Source: a virus
DNA length: 64,000 nt
IMG/VR virus record: IMGVR_UViG_3300030104_005320
Location: 51,904-115,903 of that record
Strand: one strand, 5' to 3'
The first letter of the stretch is position 1; each line of letters begins with the position of its first letter. Positions 2,539-64,000 of the stretch are shown one piece after another. A program made the translations under genes and the position numbers. The notes under the pieces are model-generated. The model saw nothing but the letters and a program-made list of their open reading frames with translations. It was not told the DNA's origin and ran no database searches.

Positions 2539-4767
2539 ATGCAAGTCGCAAAAAGAGACGGAGACAAAGAAGAGTTCTCCGTAGAGAAGATTCATAAAGT
2601 AGTGGAGTGGGCTACAAACGGTATAAATGGAGTGTCCTTTTCAGATATCGAAATGAACGCCAATCTATCTTTATATGATGGCATATCTACTACAGAAATT
2701 CATCAGATACTTATTAAGTCCGCCAACGATCTTATATCAACATCGACTCCCAACTATCAATATGTTGCAGCTAGACTTTTAAATATGCAATTGAGAAAAC
2801 AGGTATGGGGCTGTGGAGACGAGGCTACGCCCTTTGCTTTGTTTCTAGAGAGAAATGTTGATAACGGAATATACGATCCTTCGGTTCTGGAAAAATGGAC
2901 CGCTGAAGATGTTGAAGTGTTTTGCAATTACATTAATCACGAACGGGACGATTTGTTTACATATGCTGGGTTACAGCAGATGATAGATAAATACTTGGTA
3001 AAAAACAGAAGCACTGGCAGGATATATGAAACACCACAATTTGCTTATATGTGTATAGCCATGTGTTTATTCGAAACTACTTCAGAAGTAAAGAACGCAT
3101 ATGACTGCTACTCCACGTTTCAAATCAATCTGCCCACCCCGATTATGGCGGGCGTTAGAACTAACATACGGCAGTTTGCTTCTTGTGTTCTTGTTGATGT
3201 TGATGATAACTTGGATGGTATTTTTAGTAGTATACACGCCGTTGGAAAATACACTGCAAGGCGGGCGGGGATCGGGCTCAACATCGGAAGAATGAGGCCA
3301 ATCAATTCGCCCATCAGAGGCGGCGAGGTTATCCACACTGGCCTCATACCATATCTTAAAAACTTTGAGTCCGCTGTAAAGTCAACAAGCCAAAACGGCT
3401 TACGTGGCGGTTCGGCCACTGTTCATGTTCCTTTCTGGCATTATGAAATTGAAGATATTATGGTTCTCAAAAACAATGCGGGCACAGACGATAATAGAGT
3501 AAGAAAGCTTGACTACTCTATACAGTTTTGTAAGTTGTTTTACGAAAGGCTTGTTGCCAATGAAGACATAACGCTGTTCAGCCCCAACGAAGCCAAGGGT
3601 CTTTATGAAGCCTTTGGAGACAATGAAAAGTTTGAAGAGCTTTATCTTAAATACGAAGAATCTAAAAGTCTTAAGTTTAGAAAAAAGATTTCCGCTAGGA
3701 AGTTGGCCGAGATTTTTGCGAGGGAAAGATTGGAGACGGGACGAATATACTCTATGAACATTGACACCGCAAATGAACACGGATCTTGGGATGTTCCTTG
3801 TTATATGTCTAATTTATGTCAAGAGATCATACATCCAACAGTACCAATTAAATCTATAGACGATCCAAATGGCGAGATTGGAATATGTATTCTTTCTGCT
3901 TTGAATTTGCTAGAATTATCAACCGAGAAAGATATACAAAAAGCATGTCGAATGGCTGTCAGAACTTTAGAGTCTGTTATAGATTATCAAGACTATCCAG
4001 TTATAGCGGGAGAAAACTTTACTAAAAATAGAAGGTCTTTAGGGATTGGTATTACTAATCTAGCTGGCTTCCTAGCTAAAAACAAACTAAAGTACGGAGA
4101 TAAGGAAGCACTTGAATTAGTTCATGAAACGATGGAGCAGATTCAATGGAACCTCCTCAATGCCAGTTGTGATCTAGCAAAAGAAAAGGGTGCATGTGCT
4201 AAGTTCCACGAGACAAAATACGCAAGAGGATTGCTGCCGGTTGACTGGTACAAAAAGACTGTTGATGAATTGGTTAAGCCAAACTACAACATGGACTGGG
4301 AGAGCTTAAGAAAGAGAATAGAAAAATATGGACTAAGACATTCTACTCTGTCGGCAATCATGCCTTGTGAGTCCTCTAGCGTCATTCAGAACAGCACAAA
4401 CGGCATTGAGCCTGTACGTAGCTTGCTTTTATACAAGAAGGCTAAAAACGGAATATTGAAACAATTAGTGCCAAATTATCATATGAGAAAAAAATACTAC
4501 ACTATGGCTTGGGAAATGACCGATAACAAAGGTATGATGGACACAGCCGCTGTAATACAGAAGTTTGTAGACATGAGTATGAGCACTAATTTGTACTACA
4601 ACTATTCGCACCATGAAGATGGCAATGTTCCCTTGAGCACGTTGATTAGAGATCAAATATACGGATATAAATACGGATTGAAAAATTTCTATTACGCCAA
4701 TACTCCAGATGGAGATGGCGATACAGAAAAAGAAATGAATTGTGAATCAGGAGCCTGTGCGATATAA
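2539..4767 (+). CDS. nrdA: Ribonucleoside-diphosphate reductase class Ia, alpha subunit
   Basis: The large catalytic subunit, which reduces NDPs to dNDPs with NrdB. At 742 aa it is close to the usual length. An ATP-cone occupies about residues 1-90, suggesting dATP control is retained. Catalytic residues fit E. coli NrdA: C216 (in SCVLVD), the N425-L-C427-Q-E429 motif, C450 (in GICILSAL), the paired tyrosines in NFYYANT near the C-terminus, and the redox tail CESGACAI (E. coli has CESGACKI). The segment PCESSSVIQNSTNGIEP is also typical. It is the first gene of an operon behind a promoter-like sequence. Its stop overlaps the next ATG by one base (TAATG). Confidence 0.97.
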   Translation: MQVAKRDGDKEEFSVEKIHKVVEWATNGINGVSFSDIEMNANLSLYDGISTTEIHQILIKSANDLISTSTPNYQYVAARLLNMQLRKQVWGCGDEATPFALFLERNVDNGIYDPSVLEKWTAEDVEVFCNYINHERDDLFTYAGLQQMIDKYLVKNRSTGRIYETPQFAYMCIAMCLFETTSEVKNAYDCYSTFQINLPTPIMAGVRTNIRQFASCVLVDVDDNLDGIFSSIHAVGKYTARRAGIGLNIGRMRPINSPIRGGEVIHTGLIPYLKNFESAVKSTSQNGLRGGSATVHVPFWHYEIEDIMVLKNNAGTDDNRVRKLDYSIQFCKLFYERLVANEDITLFSPNEAKGLYEAFGDNEKFEELYLKYEESKSLKFRKKISARKLAEIFARERLETGRIYSMNIDTANEHGSWDVPCYMSNLCQEIIHPTVPIKSIDDPNGEIGICILSALNLLELSTEKDIQKACRMAVRTLESVIDYQDYPVIAGENFTKNRRSLGIGITNLAGFLAKNKLKYGDKEALELVHETMEQIQWNLLNASCDLAKEKGACAKFHETKYARGLLPVDWYKKTVDELVKPNYNMDWESLRKRIEKYGLRHSTLSAIMPCESSSVIQNSTNGIEPVRSLLLYKKAKNGILKQLVPNYHMRKKYYTMAWEMTDNKGMMDTAAVIQKFVDMSMSTNLYYNYSHHEDGNVPLSTLIRDQIYGYKYGLKNFYYANTPDGDGDTEKEMNCESGACAI

Positions 4768-6335
4768 TGTGCGGTATAGCAGCATACGTTGGTAAAGATA
4801 ACGCATTTGATTTTATATCTAAAGCGTTGATCAAAATGGAATACCGTGGCTATGACAGCTACGGTATGCTTATAGAGAACGAAGAACATAAAGCTCTTGG
4901 TGCTCCGTCTGAAAGTATGCCAAAATTCATAGAAGGAAATAGAGGAATAGGGCACACACGATGGGCCACTCATGGCGAAGTAAGTATCAAAAACTGCCAC
5001 CCTGTTACTTATCTTGGTTGTCATGTTGTTCATAACGGCACAGTCGCAAATGAAAAGTACCACCGAACTAGACAGAGAGCTGACTATAACACCGAAACAG
5101 ACACAGAAATAATCGCTTGCGAGCTTTATAGAAGTATTAAGCTACATAAGGCAATTGAAAATCTAGATAGTATAGGAAGTTTTGTGGCTATGGTTGATTC
5201 AGTTTCTGGCCTAGCCGTCTATAGAGGGTCTAGTCCTCTTTATTATCAGGATGGAAAAATAGCTAGTGACTTAAGAGCCTTTGAGGGAAAAGTTTGTGTC
5301 ATACCAGAAAATACATTCTGCATGATCGACGACAGGTTTAGCCCTCCTGAATCGTGGGCAACCGTTGAAGTCGAGAAAGAGATCGAAGGCCATATAGAAT
5401 GTCATATGAAACACGAGATTTTATCTCAGTCGTCAATTATGAAAAATTTACAATTAACAAACACTAGAATCTTAGCGGGCAATCCTAGAGTAAAGCTGGT
5501 CGCTTGTGGCAGTAGTTATTATGCTGCTATGATGGCGGCACATTTTATGAACACCCAAGGGGGCTATGATGCAACTGCGGTATATGCCACAGAGTTTGTG
5601 TTCACGGGCCATGAAGGCACTATAATATTTATTAGCCAGAGCGGAGAAACCAAAGACGTTATAGACGCACTAAAATCAGTCTTGGACAGCCCCAAGTCTT
5701 GGAAGTCTTCTATTGATCCGGGCGGTTATGAAAAACTACCAATACATATTTTACAAAACAAAAAAGAATCTACACTGTCACAGTTGTGCGACCATTGCAA
5801 AGTGGTAAACATTGGTGTGGGCTTAGAGGTTGGAGTAGCGGCCACAAAGACATTTACATCTACTGTTCTACAGCTATCATCAATGGCTGGAATGGAAGTG
5901 GATTTGAATAGTGTATCTTCTTCGTTAAATTGGCACGATGAAGAACGGCAAAGTTATCTCGCACAAACCGTGAGCAAATATAAAAATGCTCTTATATTAG
6001 GCTCTGGAGAATTTTATCCTATAGCCTTAGAGGCGGCCCTGAAGCTAAAAGAAGTTGCATACCTGCACGCAGAAGCCATACCAGCAGACGAGATCAAACA
6101 TGGCCCTATTGCTTTGATAGATGAAAATACAATTTCTATTGTTATTGGAGATATTGATGATAGAATTGAAAACAACGTTAAACAAATAGAGTCTCGTGGA
6201 GGTAAAGTCATAAGACTTAACAATGGCCTCTGGGAAACTCTAGTAGAATTGCAATATCTTTCCTGCGATGTAGCGTTGCTTCGTGGGATAAATCCTGACA
6301 GACCAAGAAACTTAGCGAAAACGGTAACAGTATGA
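4767..6335 (+). CDS. glmS: Glutamine--fructose-6-phosphate aminotransferase (isomerizing)
   Basis: Makes glucosamine-6-phosphate from fructose-6-phosphate and glutamine, the entry step to UDP-GlcNAc. The N-terminal class-II glutamine amidotransferase domain (about 1-200) has nucleophile Cys2 (MCGIAAYVG), HTRWATHGE, VHNGT and TETDTE. Two SIS domains follow, with ACGSSYYA and SQSGETKDV, and the C-terminal LAKTVTV loop is present. At 522 aa it is shorter than the roughly 609 aa of E. coli GlmS, mainly through trimmed loops in the amidotransferase half, but the key residues remain. It sits between nrdA and nrdB, coupled to both by overlapping start and stop codons. It may feed the glycan island downstream. 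Confidence 0.94.
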   Translation: MCGIAAYVGKDNAFDFISKALIKMEYRGYDSYGMLIENEEHKALGAPSESMPKFIEGNRGIGHTRWATHGEVSIKNCHPVTYLGCHVVHNGTVANEKYHRTRQRADYNTETDTEIIACELYRSIKLHKAIENLDSIGSFVAMVDSVSGLAVYRGSSPLYYQDGKIASDLRAFEGKVCVIPENTFCMIDDRFSPPESWATVEVEKEIEGHIECHMKHEILSQSSIMKNLQLTNTRILAGNPRVKLVACGSSYYAAMMAAHFMNTQGGYDATAVYATEFVFTGHEGTIIFISQSGETKDVIDALKSVLDSPKSWKSSIDPGGYEKLPIHILQNKKESTLSQLCDHCKVVNIGVGLEVGVAATKTFTSTVLQLSSMAGMEVDLNSVSSSLNWHDEERQSYLAQTVSKYKNALILGSGEFYPIALEAALKLKEVAYLHAEAIPADEIKHGPIALIDENTISIVIGDIDDRIENNVKQIESRGGKVIRLNNGLWETLVELQYLSCDVALLRGINPDRPRNLAKTVTV

Positions 6336-22094: not shown

Positions 22095-22108
22095 AGGAGA
22101 TAGCTATT
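22095..22108 (+). promoter_or_regulatory. Ribosome binding site that fixes an ATT start codon
   Basis: AGGAG (22095-22099) is followed by 6 nt and then ATT at 22106. No ATG, GTG or TTG lies in this frame between the TAA at 22088 and a GTG at 22190. The latter would delete the DFET catalytic motif. Confidence 0.65.
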
Positions 22109-31065: not shown

Positions 31066-32099
31066 AAATACTGATTTCTAGTGATGGCCTACATGCACAC
31101 TTTTACCAAAGGTCAGCTTGGATAAATGCTTTTGAAGCGTGCGGCATACAGACTTATTTTTGGGACTGCAAACAAGTTCCTGCATTCGATGTTTTCGACG
31201 CTTTCGAACCGGATTTGTTTTTAGGACAGTCTTACAACCTAACTCCCGATTTAATAAAGTGTATATACGAAAGACCGCATCTCAAAGTGGGCCTCCGTTC
31301 AGGAGACTGGGGAGATCAAGAAAAAGAAGTAGATAAAACCAAATACAATATACTATATTGCTCTGAACAAGAAAAGCAGATTTTAAAAAAGCTAAAAGAA
31401 GAGACTGGACAGCCAGAGTTTGTTCACATTCATTACAACGATGAAGAAATCCAAAGAACACACAATCATTTTGAAACTATAGGGATTAAGCCAGTGTCGA
31501 TTATGATGTGTGCGGACACGACGATATATAACGATGCGGAGCCACAAGAAGATCTGAGGTGCGACATAGGATTTGTTGGCGGGTATTGGCCATATAAAGG
31601 TCAAGTTATAAATGAATATCTTTTTCCTATGCTTGATTCATTTAAGTACAAGGTTAAAATATTTGGCAACAGTCCTTGGCCAGCAAACCAATACTGCGGA
31701 GTGATCGATGACGACCAATTAAAAGATTTATTTGTATCGGCTAAAATATGTCCAAATTTAAGTGAGCCACATGCACAAAAATTTGGTATTGATGTAAACG
31801 AAAGAATATTTAAAATACTCTGCTCTGGCGGATTCTGTATATCTGATTATGTTAAATCTTATGAGATGTTTGGAGACGGGGTTGTCCTAGCGAAAACTCC
31901 AGAAGATTTTAGAGATAAAATAAAATACTACCTAGAAAACCATAATGAGCGTGTTATTATTAGCAAAAGAGGGCAACAATACGTAAGACAAAACCACACA
32001 GGATTTCACAGAGTTTCTAAGCTTCTAAAATCCTTTGGATATGAAGATCTGTCTAATAACATTATTGAAAAATACAAGGAATTGATTAATGAGAACTAA
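31062..32099 (+). CDS. CgeB-like glycosyltransferase (GT-B), 345 aa
   Basis: The N-terminus is KILISSDGLHAHFYQRSAW. The C-terminal region NERIFKILCSGGFCISDYVKSYEMFGDGVVLAK, then the YVRQNHTGFHRV tail, follows the CgeB/DUF3880-associated transferase pattern, in which a single domain repeats a donor-binding motif. It overlaps fcl by 11 nt. Confidence 0.75.
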   Translation: MKILISSDGLHAHFYQRSAWINAFEACGIQTYFWDCKQVPAFDVFDAFEPDLFLGQSYNLTPDLIKCIYERPHLKVGLRSGDWGDQEKEVDKTKYNILYCSEQEKQILKKLKEETGQPEFVHIHYNDEEIQRTHNHFETIGIKPVSIMMCADTTIYNDAEPQEDLRCDIGFVGGYWPYKGQVINEYLFPMLDSFKYKVKIFGNSPWPANQYCGVIDDDQLKDLFVSAKICPNLSEPHAQKFGIDVNERIFKILCSGGFCISDYVKSYEMFGDGVVLAKTPEDFRDKIKYYLENHNERVIISKRGQQYVRQNHTGFHRVSKLLKSFGYEDLSNNIIEKYKELINEN

Positions 32100-33057
32100 A
32101 GTTTTGGTCACTGGTGCTAATGGTTTTTTAGGCAAAGCCGTGTGTAAAAACATTAGAAACGTCAATAAGTATAAAGTGCTGCCCTTGCATGGTAAATCTG
32201 AATGGGATTTGACAAAACAAAAATATGTAGACTATGCCCTTCAACAATATGAACCCGATGTTGTTGTTCATCTGGCCGCTACGGTAGGAGGCATAGGTGC
32301 AAATAAAGAAAATCCCGGCCTATTTATGTATGATAATTTGTGTATGGGTATGAATCTGATAGAATCCTGTAGAAAATATGGCAAGTTAAAAAAGTTTGTC
32401 ATGGTTGGAACCGTATGTGCTTATCCAAAATTTACCCCAGTTCCATTTAAAGAGTCGGATCTTTGGAACGGCTACCCCGAAGAAACTAATGCACCTTATG
32501 GTATTGCTAAAAAGGCTCTTATGGAACTACTGATAGCCTATAAGTCGCAATACAATTTCAATGCTGTTAATTTAATACCAGTAAATATGTATGGACCTAA
32601 CGATAACTTCAATCCAGAAATAAGCCATGTCATACCGGCCTTGATTTTAAAAATAGATAGAGCTATGCATGTGGGCAAAAAAGAAATAGAGCTATGGGGA
32701 ACGGGAGAAGCTAGTAGAGAATTTTTGTATGTTGACGATTGTGCGGAGGCGATTACCAAGTCTATAGAGGCGGAAGTTGATCCAAGCCCCATAAACATAG
32801 GAACAGGAAAAGAAATCAAAATAAAAGATTTAATTACCAGACTTGCAAAACTCATGGGGTATGCAGGGGACATAAAATTTAATTCTGATCTTCCCGATGG
32901 CCAGCCAAGAAGATGTTTAGACACTAAAAAAGCAACTGAAGAACTTGGATTTACTGCAAAGACAAGCCTTCATGAAGGATTAAAAAATACCGTAAGTTGG
33001 TACTACAATAACAAGGAACAGTATAAATTCAATGATTACTTCGATTATATTCAGTAA
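32089..33057 (+). CDS. fcl: GDP-L-fucose synthase
   Basis: NADP-dependent epimerase/reductase making GDP-L-fucose from GDP-4-keto-6-deoxymannose. TGANGFLG is the Rossmann loop and AATVGGIGANKENPG is typical of the family. VGTVCAYPKF and APYGIAKKAL supply the active-site region with YxxxK. MYGPNDNFNPEISHVIPAL is diagnostic. At 322 aa it is the normal length. No GDP-mannose dehydratase is in the window, so the substrate would come from the host or another phage gene. It pairs in theory with the GT10 domain at 52444. Confidence 0.92.
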   Translation: MRTKVLVTGANGFLGKAVCKNIRNVNKYKVLPLHGKSEWDLTKQKYVDYALQQYEPDVVVHLAATVGGIGANKENPGLFMYDNLCMGMNLIESCRKYGKLKKFVMVGTVCAYPKFTPVPFKESDLWNGYPEETNAPYGIAKKALMELLIAYKSQYNFNAVNLIPVNMYGPNDNFNPEISHVIPALILKIDRAMHVGKKEIELWGTGEASREFLYVDDCAEAITKSIEAEVDPSPINIGTGKEIKIKDLITRLAKLMGYAGDIKFNSDLPDGQPRRCLDTKKATEELGFTAKTSLHEGLKNTVSWYYNNKEQYKFNDYFDYIQ

Positions 33058-42120: not shown

Positions 42121-42137
42121 GTTCATTAAGTGGAATC

Positions 42138-44966: not shown

Positions 44967-45819
44967 TTATTCTTGGGTTCCTAATTCTACCCTATATTTT
45001 AATTCGTTTATAGACGCCGGATATGACTGCGATATCGTAGACGAAATAAGCATAAATCATTGGGAGCCTAAAGATAAGTATAAAGTTGTAGTTGTATACC
45101 TACATTGCGATGGGCCTGTGGCAACAATAAACTATTGGTTAGACAATTATTTTCAAGACTGTTTTCTTATACAGCATGACACCACGGATCATGAGCAAAT
45201 ACAACCATGGACCAATAGAACTCCAGATCTAATTATGCAAAGAGAACTGTTTGACGGAACTCAGAATCCAGACAATATACCTATAGAACCATTTCATTTT
45301 CCCATACCGTCTGTCTATGATGATTCATACGAACAAATTAATGATGTAATGTTTTATGGATGTATGACTAATGAGATACGTAGACCGTTTACCGAAAAGA
45401 TATTGGAGCTATCTCAAGGCTCTCTCAAACATCTAAAGTGGGATATAAAAGTAACCGGCAGCGGCGATAGAACTCCAGAAGAATACAGAAAAGCGATTAA
45501 CCAGTGTAAGATAGGACTACATTACTTTGGCAACTCTAGAGACTCGATTCGAATATGGGAAATAGCAAGCACTAAAGCGGCGATAATTATGCCAAAACTA
45601 AGAATGAAATCTACGTCAGAAGGATACATGCCCTTCACGGAGTACGAAACAATAGAAGATAACTTTTCGGATCTAGAACAAAAAATACTTTACACACTTG
45701 AAAACGATAGGTGGAAAAATCTAGGAGAAGAATCTTTTCAGGCTTTTGAACAGCGACACTCCCCGGACCACTGCTTTAACTATTATCACAACGCCATAAG
45801 AAAGCATATACAAATATGA
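44944..45819 (+). CDS. CgeB-like glycosyltransferase (GT-B), 291 aa
   Basis: FLFFNYSWVPNSTLYFNSFIDAGYD opens a GT-B fold. CKIGLHYFGNSRDSIRIWEIASTKAAIIMPKL gives the donor-side CgeB-like motif. FEQRHSPDHCFNYY ends it, a tail typical of this group (RHSxxHRxxY). It shares this layout with the gene at 31062. ATGA overlap with the next gene. Confidence 0.75.
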   Translation: MKDFLFFNYSWVPNSTLYFNSFIDAGYDCDIVDEISINHWEPKDKYKVVVVYLHCDGPVATINYWLDNYFQDCFLIQHDTTDHEQIQPWTNRTPDLIMQRELFDGTQNPDNIPIEPFHFPIPSVYDDSYEQINDVMFYGCMTNEIRRPFTEKILELSQGSLKHLKWDIKVTGSGDRTPEEYRKAINQCKIGLHYFGNSRDSIRIWEIASTKAAIIMPKLRMKSTSEGYMPFTEYETIEDNFSDLEQKILYTLENDRWKNLGEESFQAFEQRHSPDHCFNYYHNAIRKHIQI

Positions 45820-47195
45820 TAAAATTAATTGCCTTCGATCTAGATGGCGTGCTAGTAGACGCTAGAGATCTTCATTACATGGCATTCAATCTTGCACTAA
45901 GAGATATAGATTCTTCTTATGAAATACCTAGAGAAGAACATCTATCAACTTATGACGGACTTCCTACTAATAAAAAACTAAAGATGTTGACTGAGAGAAA
46001 AGGTCTCGACCCGCAAAAACATGATCTAATCTGGAAAAAGAAACAGTCCAAAACAATAGATATAATCAATAACATGAAGCCAGATCATGATATGATACAA
46101 GTCTTAAAGACTCTAAAATCAAAGGGGTATATCATACATGTGTGTTCGAACTCAGTTAAGAATACGATAAAAATGATGCTGATTAGAAGAGGTCTTATTG
46201 AGTTTGTAGACGAAATATTCTCGAACGAAGACGTTAAAAGCCCAAAGCCAAGTCCAGAAATATACCTTCGTAGCATGGTAGCTGCTGGCGTTTGTCCTAA
46301 AGAGACACTAGTGGTTGAAGACTCTCATATAGGCAGAAAAGCCGCAATTGAGTCTGGTGCATTTTTGTGTCCCGTTAGGAATACCATGGACGTAACGCTT
46401 CGGAATATAGAAGACTCCATATCTGAAGCGGAAAGCAAAACAAAACAAGTAAGACCAAAGTGGCAGGGAGGTAAAATGAATATCTTAATACCAATGGCGG
46501 GGGCGGGATCGAGATTCGAAAAAGCTGGATATACTTTTCCCAAGCCTCTGATTGACGTGGATGGGAAGCCGATGATACAGGCCGTAGTTGATAACTTAAA
46601 TATTGACGCTAAACATATTTTTATTGTGCAAAAATCACATTATGATAGGTATAATCTTAATAATGTATTGTCGTCTATATCTCCTGACTGTGAAATTATA
46701 CAAGTAGATGGAATAACAGAAGGGGCGGCCTGCACAACGCTCTTGGCTAAAGATTTAATTAACAACGACGAACCCCTGCTGATGGCTAACTCAGACCAGT
46801 TTGTGGAATGGGACTCTAATCAATTTATGTATTCTATGATAGGAGACACTATTGACGCTGGAATGGCCACATTTAAATCTACACATCCAAAGTGGAGTTA
46901 TGCAAGACTGGATGCTAAAGGCTTTGTTTGTGAGGTCGCAGAGAAAAATCCGATCAGCGATATAGCGACGGTGGGAATCTACTACTGGTCTAAAGGTAGC
47001 GATTATGTCAAGTACGCCGAACAAATGATAGATAAGGATATAAGGGTCAATAACGAATTTTACGTCTGTCCCGTGTTTAATCAGGCTATAGAAGATGGTA
47101 AAAAAATAAAAACGTTCAATATAGAAAAAATGTGGGGTCTAGGAACCCCTGAAGACTTGAATCATTATTTAAACAACTACAAAGGCCAACAATGA
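45816..47195 (+). CDS. Fusion: HAD phosphatase + sugar nucleotidyltransferase, 459 aa
   Basis: Residues 1 to about 205 are a capped HAD of the beta-phosphoglucomutase/phosphatase type (FDLDGVLVDARDLHY, IHVCSNSVKN, VEDSHIGRKAAIESGA). Residues 221-459 are an NTP-transferase (NILIPMAGAGSRFEKAGYTFPKPLIDV, LLMANSDQFVEW). The junction carries AGGGAGGT just before an in-frame ATG at 46476, so the transferase may also be made alone. The pair could dephosphorylate a bisphosphate and then activate the 1-phosphate. Confidence 0.88.
   Translation: MIKLIAFDLDGVLVDARDLHYMAFNLALRDIDSSYEIPREEHLSTYDGLPTNKKLKMLTERKGLDPQKHDLIWKKKQSKTIDIINNMKPDHDMIQVLKTLKSKGYIIHVCSNSVKNTIKMMLIRRGLIEFVDEIFSNEDVKSPKPSPEIYLRSMVAAGVCPKETLVVEDSHIGRKAAIESGAFLCPVRNTMDVTLRNIEDSISEAESKTKQVRPKWQGGKMNILIPMAGAGSRFEKAGYTFPKPLIDVDGKPMIQAVVDNLNIDAKHIFIVQKSHYDRYNLNNVLSSISPDCEIIQVDGITEGAACTTLLAKDLINNDEPLLMANSDQFVEWDSNQFMYSMIGDTIDAGMATFKSTHPKWSYARLDAKGFVCEVAEKNPISDIATVGIYYWSKGSDYVKYAEQMIDKDIRVNNEFYVCPVFNQAIEDGKKIKTFNIEKMWGLGTPEDLNHYLNNYKGQQ
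46467..46478 (+). promoter_or_regulatory. Internal ribosome binding site and start within the HAD-NTase gene
   Basis: GGAGG (46467-46471), 4 nt, then ATG at 46476 in frame with the long gene, exactly at the domain boundary (residue 221). It may give a second, shorter product. Confidence 0.5.
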
Positions 47196-50481: not shown

Positions 50482-50885
50482 ATGTTGAAGTTTCTAACGG
50501 CGAAATTGCCGACAAAGTTTCTATATTAATGATCAAGGCACAAAAGATACACGATCCCGATAAGATGAAAAACATAGCTGAAGAGCTTGAAGCCTTATCG
50601 GTTGCCTTTGGTCAGATAGTAGGACATCCTTCGGATGTATTCAAAAAAGATGGAATTTGGGAATTGTTTTTTTCTTTGAAAAACATAAACGAAAAACTCT
50701 GGAACATAGAAGACAAGATAAGGGAAAAAGAAAAGAACAAACAGTTTGATGCAGAGTTTATAGAGTTGGCTAGATCGGTATATATGACCAATGATAAAAG
50801 ATCTAAAATAAAAGCAGAGATAAACAAGACTTCACACTCAAGACTATTAGAAGAAAAGTCCTACAGCGACTATCTAAGCCAATAA
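50478..50885 (+). CDS. DUF6165-like protein, 135 aa
   Basis: EVSNGEIADKVSILMIKAQKIHDP matches the start of DUF6165 (GEIxDKxxIL.IK). The rest is helical (LWNIEDKIREKEKNKQFD). Such genes are frequent neighbours of LPS or capsule transferases; their activity is unknown. It is the last + strand gene and converges with the minus-strand genes, its last 16 nt overlapping the neighbour's 3' end. Confidence 0.8.
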   Translation: MNVEVSNGEIADKVSILMIKAQKIHDPDKMKNIAEELEALSVAFGQIVGHPSDVFKKDGIWELFFSLKNINEKLWNIEDKIREKEKNKQFDAEFIELARSVYMTNDKRSKIKAEINKTSHSRLLEEKSYSDYLSQ

Positions 50886-51715
50886 TTATTTTTTACGCGA
50901 TGATTGCAGTCTTGAGATTTTACTCTAGACCAGCCAGAATCGTAAGAATCATTTAGATAGCCTTCTCCAGTCATAATTAAATCTCTTTCTGCCCAGTAGA
51001 ACTTAGGAACGTCTACTTTACACATTCTGATTAGGTGCATCCAAGATGTATCTACAGTGTGTATTTCAGAAGCGTTTTTGATGACCTTAATCCAGTCAAA
51101 AATAAGGGTATCTTTCCATGGGTAGTTTGCTGGATCTATGACAGGAAGGTCCGTAGGGGGGCTAAAATCGAAGCTGTACTTACGGCTGTCCCTTACTACG
51201 AAAGCGTATTTATTGGGCAGCTTTAGACTTTCAAAAAGATCGTTTTCTTTTTTTATATCTCTTGGTAAAAAGTAGCTTTTATATCTTTCTTCATACGGAA
51301 CCTGTTGGACAGAATAAAAAACTTTAGGCCATATTGTAGATTCTGGTAGATTTAATTTTTTAGCCTGCTCCAGCCATTGACTTTCTTTATTAAAGTAACA
51401 CCTTCTTAGTGGAGGTATATCAACGCCGGGGTTATCCTGCCTAATTTTTTTGTAAGCACTTTCTTGCCTGAGCCTTGCCTGTCTGGTGCTACTGGGGTGC
51501 GGCTTTACAAACGGAATAATTTTATCATTATCCCTATACATAAATTCAATATGCTTTAATCTAGAGTCCCAACAAACTACATAAACCCTGTCATATATCG
51601 ATGCAAAATATCTGATAGAGCCATTCATGACAATAGAATCGCCCAAGCCTGTATTGTTAGCTACTACTATCCATTTTTTCTTTAATGTCTGTCCAGCCAT
51701 TATCATATCCATCAT
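50870..51715 (-). CDS. Putative GT-B-like sugar transferase of the GLGD family
   Basis: VVANNTGLGDSIVMNGSIRYFA, YVVCWDSRLKHIEFMYRD and ASEIHTVDTSWMHLIRM align in order with the next minus-strand gene (AHNTGLGDHIMMNGAARYLL, YVVTYGQKVEHVKYMYRD, ATEIHTVDTSWFHLI). They are clear paralogues, and the 37871 gene is a third, more distant member. The GT9-like fold is a guess. The start is uncertain: ATGs at 51715, 51712, 51706 and 51700 are all possible, with GGAGA 11 nt before the first. The longest ORF reaches 51754. Confidence 0.75.
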   Translation of the reverse strand: MMDMIMAGQTLKKKWIVVANNTGLGDSIVMNGSIRYFASIYDRVYVVCWDSRLKHIEFMYRDNDKIIPFVKPHPSSTRQARLRQESAYKKIRQDNPGVDIPPLRRCYFNKESQWLEQAKKLNLPESTIWPKVFYSVQQVPYEERYKSYFLPRDIKKENDLFESLKLPNKYAFVVRDSRKYSFDFSPPTDLPVIDPANYPWKDTLIFDWIKVIKNASEIHTVDTSWMHLIRMCKVDVPKFYWAERDLIMTGEGYLNDSYDSGWSRVKSQDCNHRVKNNYWLR

Positions 51716-52442
51716 TAAGGTAATTTTCTCCACACGCGGGAACCGGTCTTGCATATCTATGAAAAAATCTAGGATTATCTAGCTTCATAGATTTTATTAA
51801 ATGAAACCAAGAAGTATCAACCGTGTGTATTTCTGTAGCGTTTTCTATAACAGACATCCAATCAAAAACCAAAGTCTTCAAGGGAAATGAGTCAGGGCTA
51901 ACAATCGGAAGTTTAGTGTTAAGATAAATTCTAGATTGTTTCTTAGCTCTTTTGCTCGCTACAAAAGCGTACTCCTTGGGCAATCCAAGACGTTTATACA
52001 GCTCTCTCTCACGATGCGGATCTCTTTTAAAGTAAAAACTTTCATGTCTTTGTTTGTAGTCTACGCCAACAGCTTTGTAAAAAGCTTCACACCAGCAGCT
52101 TTTTTCCACATCTAACCCTATTCTTTCTACCAGATCGGGCCAGTCACGCATGTATGGCCAGAAAAACATCCTTGCATCAAAACCCTCTTTCTCATATCTG
52201 GCTCTAATTTTTCTAATTTTCCTTTGTGCGTGCTTGCCACTGGCGGCATCTGTCTCGGCCACTATATGTATTCTTGGATCGTCTCTATACATATACTTTA
52301 CATGTTCTACTTTTTGCCCATAGGTCACGACATAAACTTGATCATAGGAATTTAACAGATATCTAGCAGCACCATTCATCATAATATGGTCTCCTAGCCC
52401 CGTGTTATGTGCAATAATGCATCTGTCTAAAACTAACTTCAT
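51657..52442 (-). CDS. Putative GT-B-like sugar transferase of the GLGD family, 261 aa
   Basis: Paralogue of the gene at 50870 with the same GLGD, YMYRD and EIHTVDTSW blocks. The middle is basic (RAKKQSRIYLNTK). It overlaps the downstream paralogue by up to 59 nt, and starts one base after the stop of the GT10 fusion gene. Minus-strand neighbours on both sides suggest one operon with the GT10 and GT13-GT7 genes. Confidence 0.78.
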   Translation of the reverse strand: MKLVLDRCIIAHNTGLGDHIMMNGAARYLLNSYDQVYVVTYGQKVEHVKYMYRDDPRIHIVAETDAASGKHAQRKIRKIRARYEKEGFDARMFFWPYMRDWPDLVERIGLDVEKSCWCEAFYKAVGVDYKQRHESFYFKRDPHRERELYKRLGLPKEYAFVASKRAKKQSRIYLNTKLPIVSPDSFPLKTLVFDWMSVIENATEIHTVDTSWFHLIKSMKLDNPRFFHRYARPVPACGENYLNDGYDNGWTDIKEKMDSSS

Positions 52443-52443
52443 T

Positions 52444-54033
52444 TCAATAATCCGTATTATGGGAACAAGGAGGATTTACTTGGCCTACGTGTTCATTGTT
52501 TTTTCTAAGAGTTGGAAAATCTAACTGGATTGCACCATCTATTTTTTCATTATTTTTTATACGAGATGTTATTTCAGGATTTCTTTTTTCATAATCTCCA
52601 TATAAGATACCGTTCTCGTGGCCAACATGAGATAAAGACTCGTCCTTGTAAATCGGCCATATGAATTCAGTCAACCATTTTTGGTCAACTCCCTTGCGAT
52701 CCTCCTTGTTAAAGCTGGCTATCATTTCTACTACATTTGGAATACCGCCCTTTATGCCCCACATACCCCCAAGGATTGGTATGTCGTGCCAATAGTGGTC
52801 TCTCATGCAGTGTAAAGATTTTTTAGATTGTAGCCACTCGTTAACAGCATGAACTTCTCTCCATAAGATTACTGAATCAGCGTCCCTAAATATTACAATA
52901 TTTGAGTCTTTAGCGGCATAAAATCGCCAAAACATAGAAAGGTTATTTTCTGGTTCTCCTTTCATATATATTAAATTACAACCCATTTCTTCTAAAGAAT
53001 CGCATACATGCCTTGGAACAGAATCCCCTATGTAAAAACGCCACTCCCAATCTGGATATTTATCCCTGCCATATTTGACGCATCTAACGGCACCGTCTGT
53101 GTATAAGGTATCTGATCCATACAAGCTAAATGATATTATCTTGTTATTGCTTTTGTTGATTTTTTTATTTATTATTGTTGAAAGTGTTGGGAAAAACTGC
53201 AACTCATTTAGAATTTTTTTCTTAGCGGCCTTTATGTATGGCAACCTTCTTTCCCACTCGTTGTTTTTTATCGCAGATTTAATTAAGGACAAAGAGTGCT
53301 GCTTGTCATGAACCGTAATTGGTATATATGCTCTAGGATCTATAAACTCGTACAGATTAGGACAGCCCCAGTAAAAGCATAAACATTCAGACAATATTGC
53401 GTCTACTATCTTTTCTGTGAAATAATTTTTTTCAGCAGTATTTTCAGCAGAGTATGTGTACTTATATGGGAATAAACCTTGATCTTTTGTTCTCCATGGA
53501 AGTGGCCCCATTTCTTTACCGGCTGATGGCCAGTGCTCAGGAATCCAAACATTTGCATGACCCCTTCCCCAGACATCCATTTCTATATTTTCACATATAT
53601 GGCAAAGAAGCTCTAGTCTCTGATTATGTCCGGGCAGCCATCTCTCGCCAGACATTACTGTAGAAAGTTTTTTGGTTTTTTTAAGGCTTACTTTTCCCTG
53701 TGTGAGATCAGAGTAGGTTGGAGATATCCACCACTCAACGGGATTTTTATAATGATAAAATAATATCTTGTCTCTATGTGCCTCGACATTTGAAAAAATG
53801 CCGGGAAATTGAGATATGCTATATTTCGGCTCCATCTGTATAACTATAGTTCTTTTGGGTTCTATGTTTTCTTTATCCCAATCTACCCAATTAATAACCA
53901 CAGAGAAATCTTCGTCCTCATCTACTAGCTGTATATCTTTCCAGCCCCCTTTTTCATCGGCCATTTTTTTAAAGTACCCATTAAGATAAGGCTCCTCCTT
54001 GTAATAATTGCCAACTATTTTTACTCTATACAT
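52444..54033 (-). CDS. Fusion: GT10-like fucosyltransferase + GT-A-like domain, 529 aa
   Basis: Residues 1 to about 285 match family GT10. YSAENTAEKNYFTEKIVDAIL (around 195-214) corresponds to the FENS...DYxTEK signature and FYWGCPNLYEFIDPRAYIPI to the closing PVxxG region. Residues about 298-529 are a second domain homologous to the whole protein at 35227 (FSLYGSD, FRDADSV, MRDHYWH, LGGMWG). The GT10 domain likely transfers L-fucose from GDP-fucose, consistent with fcl at 32089. It abuts the GT13-GT7 gene with no gap. Confidence 0.85.
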   Translation of the reverse strand: MYRVKIVGNYYKEEPYLNGYFKKMADEKGGWKDIQLVDEDEDFSVVINWVDWDKENIEPKRTIVIQMEPKYSISQFPGIFSNVEAHRDKILFYHYKNPVEWWISPTYSDLTQGKVSLKKTKKLSTVMSGERWLPGHNQRLELLCHICENIEMDVWGRGHANVWIPEHWPSAGKEMGPLPWRTKDQGLFPYKYTYSAENTAEKNYFTEKIVDAILSECLCFYWGCPNLYEFIDPRAYIPITVHDKQHSLSLIKSAIKNNEWERRLPYIKAAKKKILNELQFFPTLSTIINKKINKSNNKIISFSLYGSDTLYTDGAVRCVKYGRDKYPDWEWRFYIGDSVPRHVCDSLEEMGCNLIYMKGEPENNLSMFWRFYAAKDSNIVIFRDADSVILWREVHAVNEWLQSKKSLHCMRDHYWHDIPILGGMWGIKGGIPNVVEMIASFNKEDRKGVDQKWLTEFIWPIYKDESLSHVGHENGILYGDYEKRNPEITSRIKNNEKIDGAIQLDFPTLRKNNEHVGQVNPPCSHNTDY

Positions 54034-55428
54034 TTATGTTTTAACCCTATTTATAACATAAGATTTATTTTCAATCCTTTCAACAAGTGTATAGTTTAAA
54101 TTTTTCAGGCCATCAGTACTGAAATCATATCGAGAGTGTAACTTTTCTACATTCAAACTGTGAGATTTTTTTGAAGCTTTATCATGATGCATAGACGCAA
54201 ATCTTCCATCTCTTCTTTTCCATGAGATACCTAATGAATCAATTCTTTTTTTCATGTCGTCATCTTCTGCTCCCCATCCCCAATACTCATTTGAGTAACC
54301 ATTTAAAAGATTAAAATGAAACTTATCAAAAAGTGTGACGCCTCCAAATATACCAGCATACGGAAGCTTATAATTAAATTGAGAACAAAACGCAGAAAGG
54401 TGTGTTGGCGTACACGGAAAAGAGTAGTCACAAGACCTGCCTTCTGGAATCAAATCTATATCATGGAAACAAAAATAACAATTCTTATGTTTGTTTAAAT
54501 CGTAACCTATATTCAAAAGCTTGGCACGATTAAATTCATGGTCGTCGTATTGCTCTATAATTTGTATTTCATATTTGATATCCGGATGATAAAAATTCAT
54601 ATGGTCAGAAATACCAGAAACAAAGGACTCGACTTGATGCTCCCTGTTTCTGTAGGGAACAACTACACACATGTTATTAAACTCTTCAGTAGAAAAGTCT
54701 GAAACAAAATATTTAGACTCTGCTATATCTTGTTTTAAATATTTTATGTCAAAAAAATTATAATGATTCTGAACTTCAGGGTTAACGTGCGTGCCCCACG
54801 TTCCAAGATGAGTAGTCCTGCTAACTTCAGGCTGTAGCCATTTCATTCCATGCCATATTATGTGTGCTCTTATTGCAAAATCCCAACCCTTAGTTTTTAA
54901 ATGGTGGTCTTTCCTGTACCAATTAAATTTTAGCTGATCAAACCATCCTCTTTTGTCAAGTATAAATCCTAGTGCCGACCAGTTATATGTATCGACAACA
55001 AATTCTTGAGACTCTTTTTTAGAGTATTCACTAAAAGAATCATAGTTAAAGAGAGAAATTCCCGCATAACCCTTGTAAGAATCTCTATCTAAAGTCATAT
55101 ACCAATCTGCTATCTTAGTAATGTCTGGAGAAACCACTAGGTCTTCTTCTAGATATATATTAACATCAGAAAGCAGGACTTCATAAACATATGAAAGCAA
55201 CTTAAATGGATGGTTTTTAACTCCTTCTTTTTCTTTGGGCACAATAATCTTGTATTGTAGTCCATCCAATATTTTATTTATTGAAGATATCATATCTTCT
55301 AGCAAAGGAGTAGGCTCAACAGATAGTATTATATCCCAACCGTCAAGATCGTTTTTGACCAGAGAAGAAAGTAAATTCTCTAATAACTTTTTTCTGTTGT
55401 GAACAGTTACAGTTATTGTTTTTTTCAT
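54034..55428 (-). CDS. Fusion: GT13 (GnT-I-like) + GT7 (beta-1,4-galactosyltransferase-like), 464 aa
   Basis: Residues 1 to about 245 follow N-acetylglucosaminyltransferase I: YLEEDLVVSPD (EED at 94-96), GWDFAIRAH and QPEVSRTTHLG (around 200-209), with a late FFDIKYLKQD. Residues about 250-464 follow beta4GalT: VVPYRNRE, FNRAKLLNIGY (299-309), HDIDLIP (322-328, the DxD), GIFGGVTLFDKFHF, and NEYWGWGAEDDD (380-391). Both domains keep their metal-site acids. There is no signal anchor, so it acts in the cytoplasm. Order suggests GlcNAc then Gal transfer. It is the first gene of the minus-strand transferase operon. Confidence 0.88.
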   Translation of the reverse strand: MKKTITVTVHNRKKLLENLLSSLVKNDLDGWDIILSVEPTPLLEDMISSINKILDGLQYKIIVPKEKEGVKNHPFKLLSYVYEVLLSDVNIYLEEDLVVSPDITKIADWYMTLDRDSYKGYAGISLFNYDSFSEYSKKESQEFVVDTYNWSALGFILDKRGWFDQLKFNWYRKDHHLKTKGWDFAIRAHIIWHGMKWLQPEVSRTTHLGTWGTHVNPEVQNHYNFFDIKYLKQDIAESKYFVSDFSTEEFNNMCVVVPYRNREHQVESFVSGISDHMNFYHPDIKYEIQIIEQYDDHEFNRAKLLNIGYDLNKHKNCYFCFHDIDLIPEGRSCDYSFPCTPTHLSAFCSQFNYKLPYAGIFGGVTLFDKFHFNLLNGYSNEYWGWGAEDDDMKKRIDSLGISWKRRDGRFASMHHDKASKKSHSLNVEKLHSRYDFSTDGLKNLNYTLVERIENKSYVINRVKT

Positions 55429-55539: not shown

Positions 55540-56508
55540 TTACAGATATTCTAATGAAAAATACAGCCCGTAGCTCTCCTTAGATCCTGTAGACAGGGGA
55601 GAAGCAGAAAGAGCTACAGACCATGTATGGTGTGTATCAACCCCAGTTCCTCCATAGTTTAGTTGTTTACTTGAAGAGCCGTCGCCAAACTGATGAGCAG
55701 TAGATCCGAAGAAGGTTTGCTGATTACCAGTAGTTTTTAGATACTGGGTCCATTTAGGCCAGACCATTCCGGTTCCACTAACAACTTGATTGTTTTGCAG
55801 ACCTTTTTGCCCAGAGCCCGGAGAGTCGAGAAGAGGGACGATAATTCCAGTTCCTCCTACTGTATCATAAGATCCAGCAACTCCCGCAGTGGCAAGTCTG
55901 GAATCTCCATTGACAACAGAAGAGTTATCGTATCCATTTGTAAAAGTAACAGCAGAGCTATTAACAAAGGAATTAGTAACTAAAGCGTTTGGCCAAGGCT
56001 CTCCCCACCATAAAGCGTCTCCACTTCCTACGGCATTTGAAGTGACAGATGTAGAACCCTGATTGTTAAATGTGCTGCCATTATGATTGACAATTTCTGC
56101 AACTTTAGTGTTCACGCCACTAGCTGGAAAATTTACATTATTTCTATCAAAAATTCTAAGTTGACAATTTTGAGCTTTAACAGCAGATGTATGGCCAAAT
56201 TCGATACCTAAAGTTCCATGCATGGTCTTAACTCCAGAAAGACCAATATTGGTATCGCTACCGGCAAAAGCACCTCCAAGAGTACATCGACCACTAGGGA
56301 ACACGGAAGTAACGTATTTTAAGTTATTTGTAGCATCAGAATTGGTGCTGCCATCAGAGTTTGCAATCGTTGTTACATCTTGATATGAGCCTATTTGAAC
56401 CGATGCTCCAGCGGTAGCACCATAAAAAGCCAAACCAGAACCCGAAAACGTATCAATAGCAGGCGTGCCGTTAGCCTGTTTTAGTAATTGGAACCTTATT
56501 TCTGCCAT
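55540..56508 (-). CDS. Putative virion/tail-fibre structural protein, 322 aa
   Basis: Gly/Ser/Thr/Asn-rich beta protein starting MAEIRFQLLKQANGTPAID. It has no enzyme motif. The C-terminus (KESYGLYFSLEYL) looks like a terminal beta strand of a fibre or decoration protein. A strong AAGGAG ribosome binding site precedes it. It is the last gene of the structural run; receptor-binding function is possible but unproven. Confidence 0.65.
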   Translation of the reverse strand: MAEIRFQLLKQANGTPAIDTFSGSGLAFYGATAGASVQIGSYQDVTTIANSDGSTNSDATNNLKYVTSVFPSGRCTLGGAFAGSDTNIGLSGVKTMHGTLGIEFGHTSAVKAQNCQLRIFDRNNVNFPASGVNTKVAEIVNHNGSTFNNQGSTSVTSNAVGSGDALWWGEPWPNALVTNSFVNSSAVTFTNGYDNSSVVNGDSRLATAGVAGSYDTVGGTGIIVPLLDSPGSGQKGLQNNQVVSGTGMVWPKWTQYLKTTGNQQTFFGSTAHQFGDGSSSKQLNYGGTGVDTHHTWSVALSASPLSTGSKESYGLYFSLEYL

Positions 56509-61633: not shown

Positions 61634-62794
61634 TTACTCCAAATAGCCTTTAGTATAAAGCGTAATATTGTTAGGTTGCGGATCTTTTGTGTTTCCTATG
61701 TTTAGACTAGCATCGCCCGTTTGACCGAAGACACCCGAATTCATATACAGAGGAATATTGCCACTTACCGCTCTACTGAATATGGCAAGTGTAGTAGTAC
61801 TACCGATATTAAAATCTTGTTTAACGGCAAGGTTCATTGATCCGCTTGACACAGGATTAGATTCTATAAATAAAGTTGAATTTTCATTAACGGCCCCGGC
61901 GTCTGCACCGGAAGAAAATAAAGTCGCCTCTTTGTTTACAGAAGCGAATACGCCAGAAACAAAAACAGTTGCTTGATTTACTCCGCTTCCTATTCGGTCT
62001 GCCTGTAAGTTCAAAGTCGCAGTCGCATTCTTGGGGCTGTACTCAGTTCCAGTAATGCGTAGATTTCCATCTTGCTGATAGCCAGAGGGAAAAGATTGAT
62101 CGTTAATAAATGTCAAAGTAGATGTATAGCTAGGAGGGTCGCTCCAAATACTAGTTTCAGAATCCCATCTAAAATGAATTTTATCATCGGGAGCAAAGTA
62201 TACTCCTGTAAGATCTAAATCTATGTATCCACTTCCGGCTTGACTTCCGGTTACAGCACGCAGTTGCCATTCTTCACCGCCGCTTGTAAATGGTGAGGCG
62301 GGATTGTAGGCAGAAACAGAAGCTCCTGTCTGCCAAGCACCAGACGCCGAACCTACTCTTTTGCTTAGTATATTATTATTTTTATCTCTGTGCTCGGCAC
62401 GAAAGAAAATGTATCCTTCTTCCCCTGCGTTTTTGTAAAAAATGTTTATTTTTTTGGTCTTTACGTCATAACCTCTTCTTGAAGAAGGGCCATAGTTAGT
62501 GACATCATCGCCCGTCGAGGACGAGGTTGGCGACCAATCATCATAAGACCCATCAGTAGAACTTATATATAAACTAGTATCAACATTAGAGGAGTCAGAA
62601 TTAGAATTGATAGTCAGAGGCATTGTCTCTGTTGGCGGCCTAGCCATAAACAATGATATGTCGCCGCTAGATGCCGTTGGCCCCTCAATATACAACGTGC
62701 CACTACCTATGATATCAGGGGCACCTCTGATAACTAGGTTCGTTGTTTTTATGGGGTTTCCTAATATTACTGGCATCTTATTATCCTGCTTCAA
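61634..62794 (-). CDS. Repeat-containing virion protein, 386 aa
   Basis: Repeated short units with a TLxIxxxxxxSG-xxLxxx pattern: GTLYIEGPTASSGDISLFM, NSTLFIESNPVSSGSMNL, TTLAIFSRAVSGNIPLYM, ASLNIGNT, NITLYTKG. They occur at the N-terminus and, more densely, in the last ~130 residues, separated by a Gly/Ser/Tyr-rich middle. Such repeats are typical of fibre or whisker shafts. The start overlaps the tape-measure gene by 14 nt. Confidence 0.7.
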   Translation of the reverse strand: MKQDNKMPVILGNPIKTTNLVIRGAPDIIGSGTLYIEGPTASSGDISLFMARPPTETMPLTINSNSDSSNVDTSLYISSTDGSYDDWSPTSSSTGDDVTNYGPSSRRGYDVKTKKINIFYKNAGEEGYIFFRAEHRDKNNNILSKRVGSASGAWQTGASVSAYNPASPFTSGGEEWQLRAVTGSQAGSGYIDLDLTGVYFAPDDKIHFRWDSETSIWSDPPSYTSTLTFINDQSFPSGYQQDGNLRITGTEYSPKNATATLNLQADRIGSGVNQATVFVSGVFASVNKEATLFSSGADAGAVNENSTLFIESNPVSSGSMNLAVKQDFNIGSTTTLAIFSRAVSGNIPLYMNSGVFGQTGDASLNIGNTKDPQPNNITLYTKGYLE

Positions 62795-64000
62795 AATCCT
62801 TATTTAATCTTTGATCTAATTCGTTAGCAATTATTTCTGAAATCTTCGGAGTAATCGCGTCTGCAATCATATTCTTGAGATGATCGCCGTTTTGTATGTT
62901 AAAGGCAAGAGTCATGTCACCGCTGAATACATGGTTTAATGTCATCCCCTGCCCAATGGCTGTAGCTAATCCATTCATCGCCGTAGAAACAAGAGAGAAT
63001 TGTGCTACTACATTATCAACGCTTGATTGGAAATTTGCAGAAAAACCTGCAAGAGTTTCTTGAAGTTGTGAAGAATCGATAGTTAAAGCAGCAGATCCGC
63101 CTCCTTCTGCTCCAGAGCTACCATTTGCCCTGTAGGCAACGCCACCAACCAAGCCTCCACGTCTGAATCCTTTTACTTTTCCTCTATTTAGATTTCTCAT
63201 AAATCCAACGCCGTGTTTTTGAACGGCCTCTGGACTCATAACGAACTCTCCGGGGGTGAGCATAGCAGGGACACTATCGTTTCCAGAAACACCGCCCCCC
63301 GTATTCATGTAAACCCCTGTCTGTTTCAACCTATTTATCGCCTCAGCCACTGTTTTACCTAACGTTTTGCCGGTCAATTCTGACTTTTGTGTTGCGACAA
63401 CCTCTTGGTCTGGATCGCCCATGCCTTCAACTGATTGTTGTGCAGCAAAGAATTCTTTCAGATCAGCCGAGCCGGGAGTCAACTTGGCGTCAAGATATGC
63501 CTCGACTGATCGTTCCATTCGCCCAATTTTGCTAACTTCACGCTGTATCAATCCGCCAAAATTTGTACCCGTAGCCTTTTTGATAACCGCCGACGCAAGC
63601 TGCTCGGTCTTGTTTATCGTTCCACCTGTGTAGAAAGGTTCCAATCGGTCAGTTATAAGTGATAATTGCGACTTATAATTCTTGGCACGAGCCCTCGAAT
63701 CATCGTCGGTTCGGCGAGGGTCAAAAGGGGGTGGCTTAAGACCAATACCGCCAGCCGAAGCAGACACGAGAAGGGGAGATTGTGCAATTGCATCTAACGC
63801 ATTAGCCGTTCCTCTACCGGCAACAACTCTATTTAGATTAAATTCACCCTTACTGGACAATAGCCGTATATCTCTAGCGGCTGCCTCGAAGCCGGCATCG
63901 TTGGGAAATTCCGATTTTATAAAACTAGCAAGATTTTTACCCGTACCAAAAGCACGCATGGAATTCCTAACCAACTGTAAATACTGGCTGCCACTCATAT
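62781..64000 (-). CDS. Tape-measure protein, C-terminal part (cut by the window edge)
   Basis: The frame is open to the window end. SVPAMLTPGEFVMSPEAVQKHGVGFMRNLN is the hallmark of phage tape-measure proteins, followed by a Gly-rich basic stretch (KVKGFRRGGLVGGVAYR). The C-terminal helix (LKNMIADAITPKISEII) fits a tail-tip binding end. The ATG nearest the edge (63998) is probably internal. It sets tail length; the rest lies outside. Confidence 0.82.
   Translation of the reverse strand, partial: MSGSQYLQLVRNSMRAFGTGKNLASFIKSEFPNDAGFEAAARDIRLLSSKGEFNLNRVVAGRGTANALDAIAQSPLLVSASAGGIGLKPPPFDPRRTDDDSRARAKNYKSQLSLITDRLEPFYTGGTINKTEQLASAVIKKATGTNFGGLIQREVSKIGRMERSVEAYLDAKLTPGSADLKEFFAAQQSVEGMGDPDQEVVATQKSELTGKTLGKTVAEAINRLKQTGVYMNTGGGVSGNDSVPAMLTPGEFVMSPEAVQKHGVGFMRNLNRGKVKGFRRGGLVGGVAYRANGSSGAEGGGSAALTIDSSQLQETLAGFSANFQSSVDNVVAQFSLVSTAMNGLATAIGQGMTLNHVFSGDMTLAFNIQNGDHLKNMIADAITPKISEIIANELDQRLNKDFEAG

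What the first reader, a model, noticed from the sequence alone, without database searches (positions are those of the whole stretch)
54034..55428. Phage-encoded fusion of GT13 (GnT-I-like) and GT7 (beta4GalT-like) glycosyltransferases
Both halves carry the diagnostic motifs of enzyme families best known from the animal Golgi: EED and PEVSRT of GnT-I, and FNRAKLLN, DID and WGWGAEDDD of beta4GalT. Fusion into one soluble cytoplasmic protein suggests sequential addition of GlcNAc and Gal in one pass. I know of no characterised phage enzyme of this design.
Basis: partly seen in the sequence, partly recalled or inferred. Interest (0 to 1): 0.88.

Follow-up and report, generated by a model that had tools for sequence, protein, structure and literature searches.

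The report
Phage two-domain sugar transferase (GT13-like + GT7)
An uncultured phage carries one gene that joins two sugar-adding enzymes best known from the animal Golgi, directly beside a fucose-adding enzyme, which suggests that the phage builds an animal-like short sugar chain, probably on its own particle; no activity has been tested.

Summary
A single 464-aa ORF fills 54034-55428, on the minus strand, in a 115,903-bp IMG/VR phage record. Residues 250-450 are a bona fide GT7 domain: Pfam 1e-22, beta4GalT1 5e-32, top 30 Foldseek hits all GT7. Residues 1-240 are GT13-like. This is weak from the single sequence, but a profile of 12 phage relatives hits POMGnT1 at 8.5e-20 and GnT-I at 9e-14, and the top 13 Foldseek hits are GT13/GT16. 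The GlcNAc-contacting and catalytic positions (E94, W182, D183) are invariant. It lacks GnT-I's C-terminal region, so I call it GT13-like.

Each domain occurs alone in other uncultured phages. Only this protein has both, in about 200 GT7 loci, about 18 GT13-like loci and about 700 bacterial genomes. Eight viral contigs carry a separate GT2-GT7 fusion.

The GT7 donor position (Tyr289 in beta4GalT1) is Ile, favouring UDP-GalNAc over UDP-Gal. The next gene, directly abutting, is a GT10 fucosyltransferase. The phage encodes GlmS, Gmd and a GDP-fucose synthase-like enzyme.

Best reading: a bifunctional GlcNAc-, then GalNAc/Gal-transferase whose product GT10 fucosylates, probably on virion tail proteins. 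Activity and target are untested.

The parts
54034..55428 (-). Whole gene, 464 aa: GT13-like domain + GT7 domain, no other domain found
   Evidence: ORF; Pfam; only match in own genome
54694..55428 (-). N-terminal GT13-like domain, aa 1-245
   Evidence: 12-member profile A2 vs PDB: POMGnT1 8.5e-20, GnT-I 9e-14, GnT-II 6.8e-8; 9 of 12 members hit PF03071 GNT-I, best 1.9e-10; AF2 pTM 0.82, Foldseek top 13 all GT13/GT16
55141..55149 (-). E94-E95-D96, DxD-equivalent metal/donor motif; E94 aligns with GnT-I Glu211
   Evidence: E94 and D96 invariant in 12 phage sequences; aligned to GnT-I EDD
54880..54885 (-). W182-D183, aligned with GnT-I Trp290 (GlcNAc O4) and Asp291 (catalytic base)
   Evidence: Invariant in A2; alignment; roles of GnT-I residues from PMC7948508
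54817..54831 (-). PEVSR motif (aa 200-204), shared with GnT-I/POMGnT1 (PEISR/PDVSR)
   Evidence: P200, S203, R204 invariant
54037..54681 (-). C-terminal GT7 domain, aa 250-464
   Evidence: Pfam 7C 1.2e-22, 7N 2.2e-16; beta4GalT1 5e-32; AF2 pLDDT about 95 in this half, top 30 Foldseek hits all GT7
54511..54534 (-). FNRAKLLN motif, aa 299-306
   Evidence: F299, N300, R301 invariant in 17 viral GT7s
54454..54462 (-). DID metal motif, aa 323-325
   Evidence: D323, D325 invariant; aligned with beta4GalT1 DVD
54349..54351 (-). Ile360, equivalent of beta4GalT1 Tyr289 (Gal/GalNAc selector)
   Evidence: Alignment; Tyr in 118 of 138 non-redundant viral GT7s, Ile in 3; selector rule from PMC5560668
54256..54282 (-). 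WGWGAEDDD, aa 383-391, acceptor/catalytic motif (D389 = beta4GalT1 Asp318)
   Evidence: W383-G386, E388-D391 invariant
52444..54033 (-). Directly abutting gene (TAA|ATG): GT10-type fucosyltransferase domain + second putative transferase domain (like ORF 35227-35949)
   Evidence: Pfam GT10 5.7e-6, above cut-off; H. pylori alpha1,3-FucT 3.4e-7; junction sequence
51657..52442 (-). Third gene of the run, no Pfam assignment; N-terminus reads like a GT9/heptosyltransferase (by eye)
   Evidence: resemblance unverified
50870..51754 (-). Fourth gene of the run, paralogue of the third by eye
   Evidence: resemblance unverified
55540..56508 (-). Gene upstream on the same strand, last of a block that begins with a tape-measure-like tail protein (62781-63998); possible acceptor, speculative
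4767..6335 (+). GlmS-like enzyme, feeds UDP-GlcNAc supply
   Evidence: glmS models 9e-87 and 3e-89, below equivalog cut-off
32089..33057 (+). GDP-L-fucose synthase-like epimerase; Gmd partner lies outside the window at G000:4522-5643 (L191)
   Evidence: 7e-86 to GDPFucSynFcl; Gmd 6e-110

Best explanation
The gene encodes a bifunctional, soluble, inverting glycosyltransferase with two GT-A domains. Shown: fold and family of both halves and conservation of their catalytic residues. Inferred: the N domain transfers GlcNAc from UDP-GlcNAc (about 0.65); the C domain then adds a beta-1,4-linked sugar to that GlcNAc (about 0.65), more likely GalNAc than Gal (about 0.6 to 0.3), giving a LacdiNAc- or LacNAc-like disaccharide; the abutting GT10 enzyme may add alpha-1,3-fucose to the GlcNAc (about 0.45), drawing on phage-encoded GDP-fucose genes. 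The glycan is most probably placed on virion (tail) proteins (about 0.5), otherwise on a host surface glycan. Fusion would keep the two steps stoichiometric and local.
For: GT7 half. GT13-like half. Donor-contact residues E94/W182/D183 match GnT-I Glu211/Trp290/Asp291, described in PMC7948508. Ile360 selector. GnT1 and a beta4GalNAcT (NGAT-1, Ile selector) are inferred to act in one pathway in C. elegans (PMC5560668), so this pairing has a natural precedent as separate enzymes. GT10 abuts the gene and overlaps the closest GT7 relatives in other phages; in the sample the three Ile-type GT7 lineages are those with an immediately adjacent GT10. Supply genes GlmS-like, Fcl-like and Gmd. The block lies on the same strand as, and downstream of, tail genes.
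Against: No activity, acceptor or product has been measured. Each domain's close relatives occur alone, so the fusion is not required for function. The N half scores just below Pfam's cut-off on its own and lacks GnT-I's C-terminal region, so its acceptor site and donor could differ. The three Ile-type GT7s may share ancestry, so the Ile/GT10 link is not three independent events. No UDP-GalNAc epimerase was identified in the phage. Only about 8 of 39 GT10 contigs have a confident GT7 within the DNA held.
Confidence: 0.5

Rival explanations
1. One reading: GlcNAc then galactose, giving LacNAc (and, with GT10, a Lewis-x-like product).
For: Same domains and GT10 neighbour. Most viral GT7s keep Tyr at the selector position, and UDP-Gal is common in bacteria (general knowledge).
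Against: This protein has Ile360, the GalNAc-type residue by the published rule.
Confidence: 0.25
2. The two domains do not act in sequence: each adds a sugar to different acceptors or branches of the phage's large glycan cluster, and the fusion only tethers them.
For: Both domains occur alone in other phages. The window holds more than a dozen other transferase genes. A different GT-A domain (GT2) is fused to GT7 in eight contigs.
Against: GT7 enzymes characteristically extend terminal GlcNAc, the sugar a GT13 enzyme adds (general knowledge; C. elegans precedent).
Confidence: 0.25
3. The N domain is a GT2-type transferase with another donor (hexose, rhamnose or similar) that merely resembles GT13.
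For: Bacterial GT2-like proteins match the family profile over its first 160 positions; weak Glycos_transf_2 hits.
Against: Solved GT2 structures score far worse (SpsA 0.046) than GT13 (8.5e-20); Foldseek ranks 13 GT13/GT16 chains first; WD and PExSR motifs are shared with GT13, and the PExSR motif is absent from the bacterial GT2 relatives printed.
Confidence: 0.2
4. The fusion is an assembly artefact joining two phages.
For: Seen in only one contig.
Against: Continuous reading frame, near-identical GC3 and similar codon usage in both halves; the junction lies about 9 kb inside the contig end.
Confidence: 0.04

Closest known systems
GT7 beta-1,4-galactosyl-/N-acetylgalactosaminyltransferases (beta4GalT1, beta4GalT7, invertebrate beta4GalNAcT such as NGAT-1)
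   Same: Fold, FNR, DxD and WGWGxEDDD motifs, catalytic acid residues; Ile selector as in NGAT-1
   Different: No membrane anchor or stem apparent; fused C-terminal to another transferase; phage-encoded
GT13 / GT16 GlcNAc-transferases (GnT-I, POMGnT1, GnT-II)
   Same: GT-A domain, ExD, WD catalytic pair, PExSR, best profile and fold matches
   Different: About 240 aa only; GnT-I's C-terminal region has no counterpart; about 19% identity; no membrane anchor apparent
Microbacterium phage Magritte gp8 and about 18 IMG/VR standalone GT13-like proteins
   Same: Same family as the N half (16-29% identity), same invariant residues
   Different: 230-270 aa, no GT7 domain
Viral standalone GT7 genes followed by GT10 (L194-L198 group)
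   Same: 49-51% identity to the C half, Ile at the selector, GT10 immediately downstream
   Different: No N-terminal GT13-like domain; GT10 overlaps rather than abuts
Viral GT2-GT7 fusions (L223, L228, L241, L245, L248, L249, L252, L256)
   Same: N-terminal GT-A domain + C-terminal GT7, about 440 aa
   Different: N domain is GT2 (Pfam 1e-9), not GT13-like; GT7 halves form a separate clade (one clade with the window rejected only marginally, p-AU 0.045)

Membership tests
GT7 | Sequence profile | tested here: met
   Glyco_transf_7C 79.7 bits (cut-off 23), 7N 60.1 (27)
GT7 | Catalytic and metal motifs (PYRxR, FNR, DxD, WGWGxEDDD, C-terminal His) | tested here: met
   All present and invariant in 17 viral sequences; aligned to beta4GalT1
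GT7 | Fold | tested here: met
   Top 30 PDB matches are beta4GalT1/beta4GalT7
GT7 | Beta-1,4 transfer from a UDP-sugar | not testable with these tools
   Needs an enzyme assay
beta4GalNAcT subgroup of GT7 | Leu/Ile at the Tyr289 position | tested here: met
   Ile360; rule from PMC5560668
GT13 | Pfam PF03071 / related model above cut-off | tested here: not met
   Window domain: no PF03071 hit, MGAT2 26.4 bits against cut-off 27. 9 of 12 relatives hit PF03071, best 1.9e-10
GT13 | Homology by family profile and fold | tested here: met
   POMGnT1 8.5e-20, GnT-I 9e-14; Foldseek top 13
GT13 | ExD, WD catalytic pair, PExSR | tested here: met
GT13 | C-terminal region after PExSR as in GnT-I | tested here: not met
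   Match ends at GnT-I chain residue about 217 of 342; window aa 211-246 are short and low-confidence
GT13 | Beta-1,2-GlcNAc transfer | not testable with these tools
   Needs an assay
GT10 (neighbour 52444-54033) | Profile and ENT...YxTEK motif | tested here: met
   26.6 bits against cut-off 23.9; H. pylori FucT 3.4e-7 with the motif aligned

The most novel reading that the evidence does not exclude
The phage assembles a fucosylated LacdiNAc (GalNAc-beta1,4-[Fuc-alpha1,3]GlcNAc), a glycan type known from helminths and other animals, on its tail, using a fused GlcNAc/GalNAc-transferase followed by a GT10 fucosyltransferase. If so, it would to my knowledge be the first animal-type glycan antenna built by a phage.
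Probability: 0.2. Interest if true: 0.85.

Novelty: new variant of a known kind. Interest (0 to 1): 0.6.

Why it matters
GT13 and GT7 are the textbook pair that build antennae on animal N-glycans. Finding minimal, apparently soluble versions fused in one phage protein, next to an alpha-1,3-fucosyltransferase-like enzyme and with phage-encoded supply genes, suggests that phages assembled an animal-like antenna pathway of their own. It also points to GT7, not detected in 50,697 phage records but present in several hundred uncultured viral contigs, as an unexplored source of compact enzymes for glycan synthesis, and it gives directly testable predictions (donor, order, I360Y switch).

Tried and rejected
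Pattern-based searches with the single protein found nothing in viral or genome contigs, nor did the two-row alignment. One DNA pattern was one base off and wasted a scan; the corrected strict pattern found no true relative in viral contigs or, as judged by blast and profile, in genome contigs. A looser pattern found the GT13-like family. A mixed alignment of both families (A4) misaligned the two GT-A domains and was not used for folding. In the full-length fold the N half lacked depth and was unreliable, so domain orientation cannot be read from it. L302, the highest-identity GT7 fragment (63%), is a frame-broken contig with a standalone GT7, not a fusion. Bacterial relatives of the N half are GT2-like and the ones printed lack the PExSR motif. 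The HxRRGD protein at L193:2991-3737 looked like a fucosyltransferase by eye but had no Pfam or PDB support. No Rfam match in the window; promoter and terminator counts do not exceed shuffles.

Full report
Observation. The ORF at 54034-55428 is real, 464 aa, and lies on the minus strand. The window is bases 51904-115903 of a 115,903-bp virus record, with a terminase, a ClpP-like head protease and a tape-measure-like protein, so this is a tailed phage.

GT7 half. Residues 250-450 match both Pfam GT7 models far above cut-off, beta4GalT1 at 5e-32 and beta4GalT7 at 5e-27. AlphaFold gives pLDDT about 95 there, and the top 30 PDB matches are all GT7. PYRxR, FNR, DxD, WGWGxEDDD and a C-terminal His are conserved across 17 viral GT7s. 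Residue I360 aligns with Tyr289 of beta4GalT1. According to PMC5560668, Tyr or Phe there specifies galactose and Leu or Ile specifies GalNAc. Of 138 non-redundant viral GT7 motifs, 118 have Tyr and only three have Ile: this gene and two relative groups.

GT13-like half. A single-sequence search is weak. Microbacterium phage Magritte gp8 and a DNA pattern scan of viral contigs supplied relatives of 230-270 aa. Their 12-row alignment leaves invariant G69, E94, D96, D102, W162, W170, W182, D183, P200, S203, R204, G209 and G212. The profile hits POMGnT1 8.5e-20, GnT-I 9e-14 and GnT-II 6.8e-8, with SpsA (GT2) at 0.046. The fold (pTM 0.82) ranks 13 GT13/GT16 chains first. E94, W182 and D183 align with GnT-I Glu211, Trp290 and Asp291, which PMC7948508 describes as GlcNAc contacts and catalytic base. 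GnT-I's C-terminal region has no counterpart, hence 'GT13-like'.

How unusual is the fusion? GT7 is frequent in uncultured viral contigs: 364 stretches by one scan, at least 120 by another. About 200 loci were inspected; only this protein matches both profiles. None of the roughly 18 GT13-like relatives is fused to GT7. In 398 Pseudomonadota and 301 Chloroflexota genomes one GT7 was found and no fusion; the empty Chloroflexota answer is weak evidence by itself. tblastn with three different GT7 queries found no convincing GT7 in 50,697 phage records. Eight contigs carry a GT2-GT7 fusion; their GT7 halves form a separate clade, and grouping them with this gene is marginally rejected (p-AU 0.045). 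GT7 therefore probably acquired an N-terminal partner at least twice.

Neighbourhood. The next gene starts directly after the stop (TAA|ATG) and carries a GT10 fucosyltransferase domain plus a second putative transferase domain. In the closest GT7 relatives, GT10 overlaps the GT7 gene; in two more distant groups it lies about 1.5 kb downstream. A reciprocal scan found 39 contigs with this GT10 motif, about 8 with a confident GT7 within the DNA held. The phage also carries a GlmS-like gene, a GDP-fucose synthase-like gene and Gmd, and more than a dozen other transferase, sulfotransferase and sugar nucleotide genes. The four-gene block continues a same-strand block that includes tail genes, which favours a virion target; virion glycosylation by phage enzymes is reported for mycobacteriophages (cited in PMC12363180 and PMC12619734).

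Verdict. Domain identities and the fusion are well supported. The order GlcNAc then GalNAc/Gal then fucose is an inference from family knowledge, selector residue and gene order. The acceptor is unknown. The case is a new variant of a known kind, with a sharp and inexpensive experimental test.

Noticed in passing
L002 (466-aa ORF), also L013, L027, L042 and many others: About half of the viral GT7 proteins sampled are about 475 aa and carry extra sequence inside the GT7 domain, after WGWGxEDDD and before the C-terminal end; in L002 this is a concanavalin A/LamG-like lectin domain (Laminin_G_3 1.4e-7). Some phages have two such genes in tandem.
   Followed up: partly
L223, L228, L241, L245, L248, L249, L252, L256: A separate class of viral GT2-GT7 fusion proteins, about 440 aa.
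   Followed up: partly
52444-54033 and 35227-35949: The C half of the GT10 protein and the 240-aa ORF appear to share a domain with no Pfam match; relatives of the C half are in Synechococcus and Acinetobacter-labelled phage records.
   Followed up: partly
20276-24335: DNA polymerase III alpha is split in two ORFs with a DnaQ-like exonuclease ORF (22190-22789) between them; no Rfam intron found.
   Followed up: partly
39680-40840 and 45816-47195: Two other fusions in the cluster: nucleotidyltransferase + RpiB/LacAB-type isomerase, and HAD phosphatase + nucleotidyltransferase.
   Followed up: no
40830-41402, 42117-42746, and L191:7644-8414: Three sulfotransferase-like genes in the phage (Pfam tested for the first only; the others by sequence resemblance).
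   Followed up: no
L192:12484-14139: A Cys-rich protein with a long Ser/Pro-rich repeat (SSSRPSSSEPSSS...), a conceivable O-glycan acceptor; no PHROG match.
   Followed up: no
whole collection: GT7 genes, frequent in IMG/VR contigs, were not convincingly detectable by tblastn in INPHARED, and PHROGs had no match for this protein, so cultured phages seem to lack this enzyme family.
   Followed up: partly
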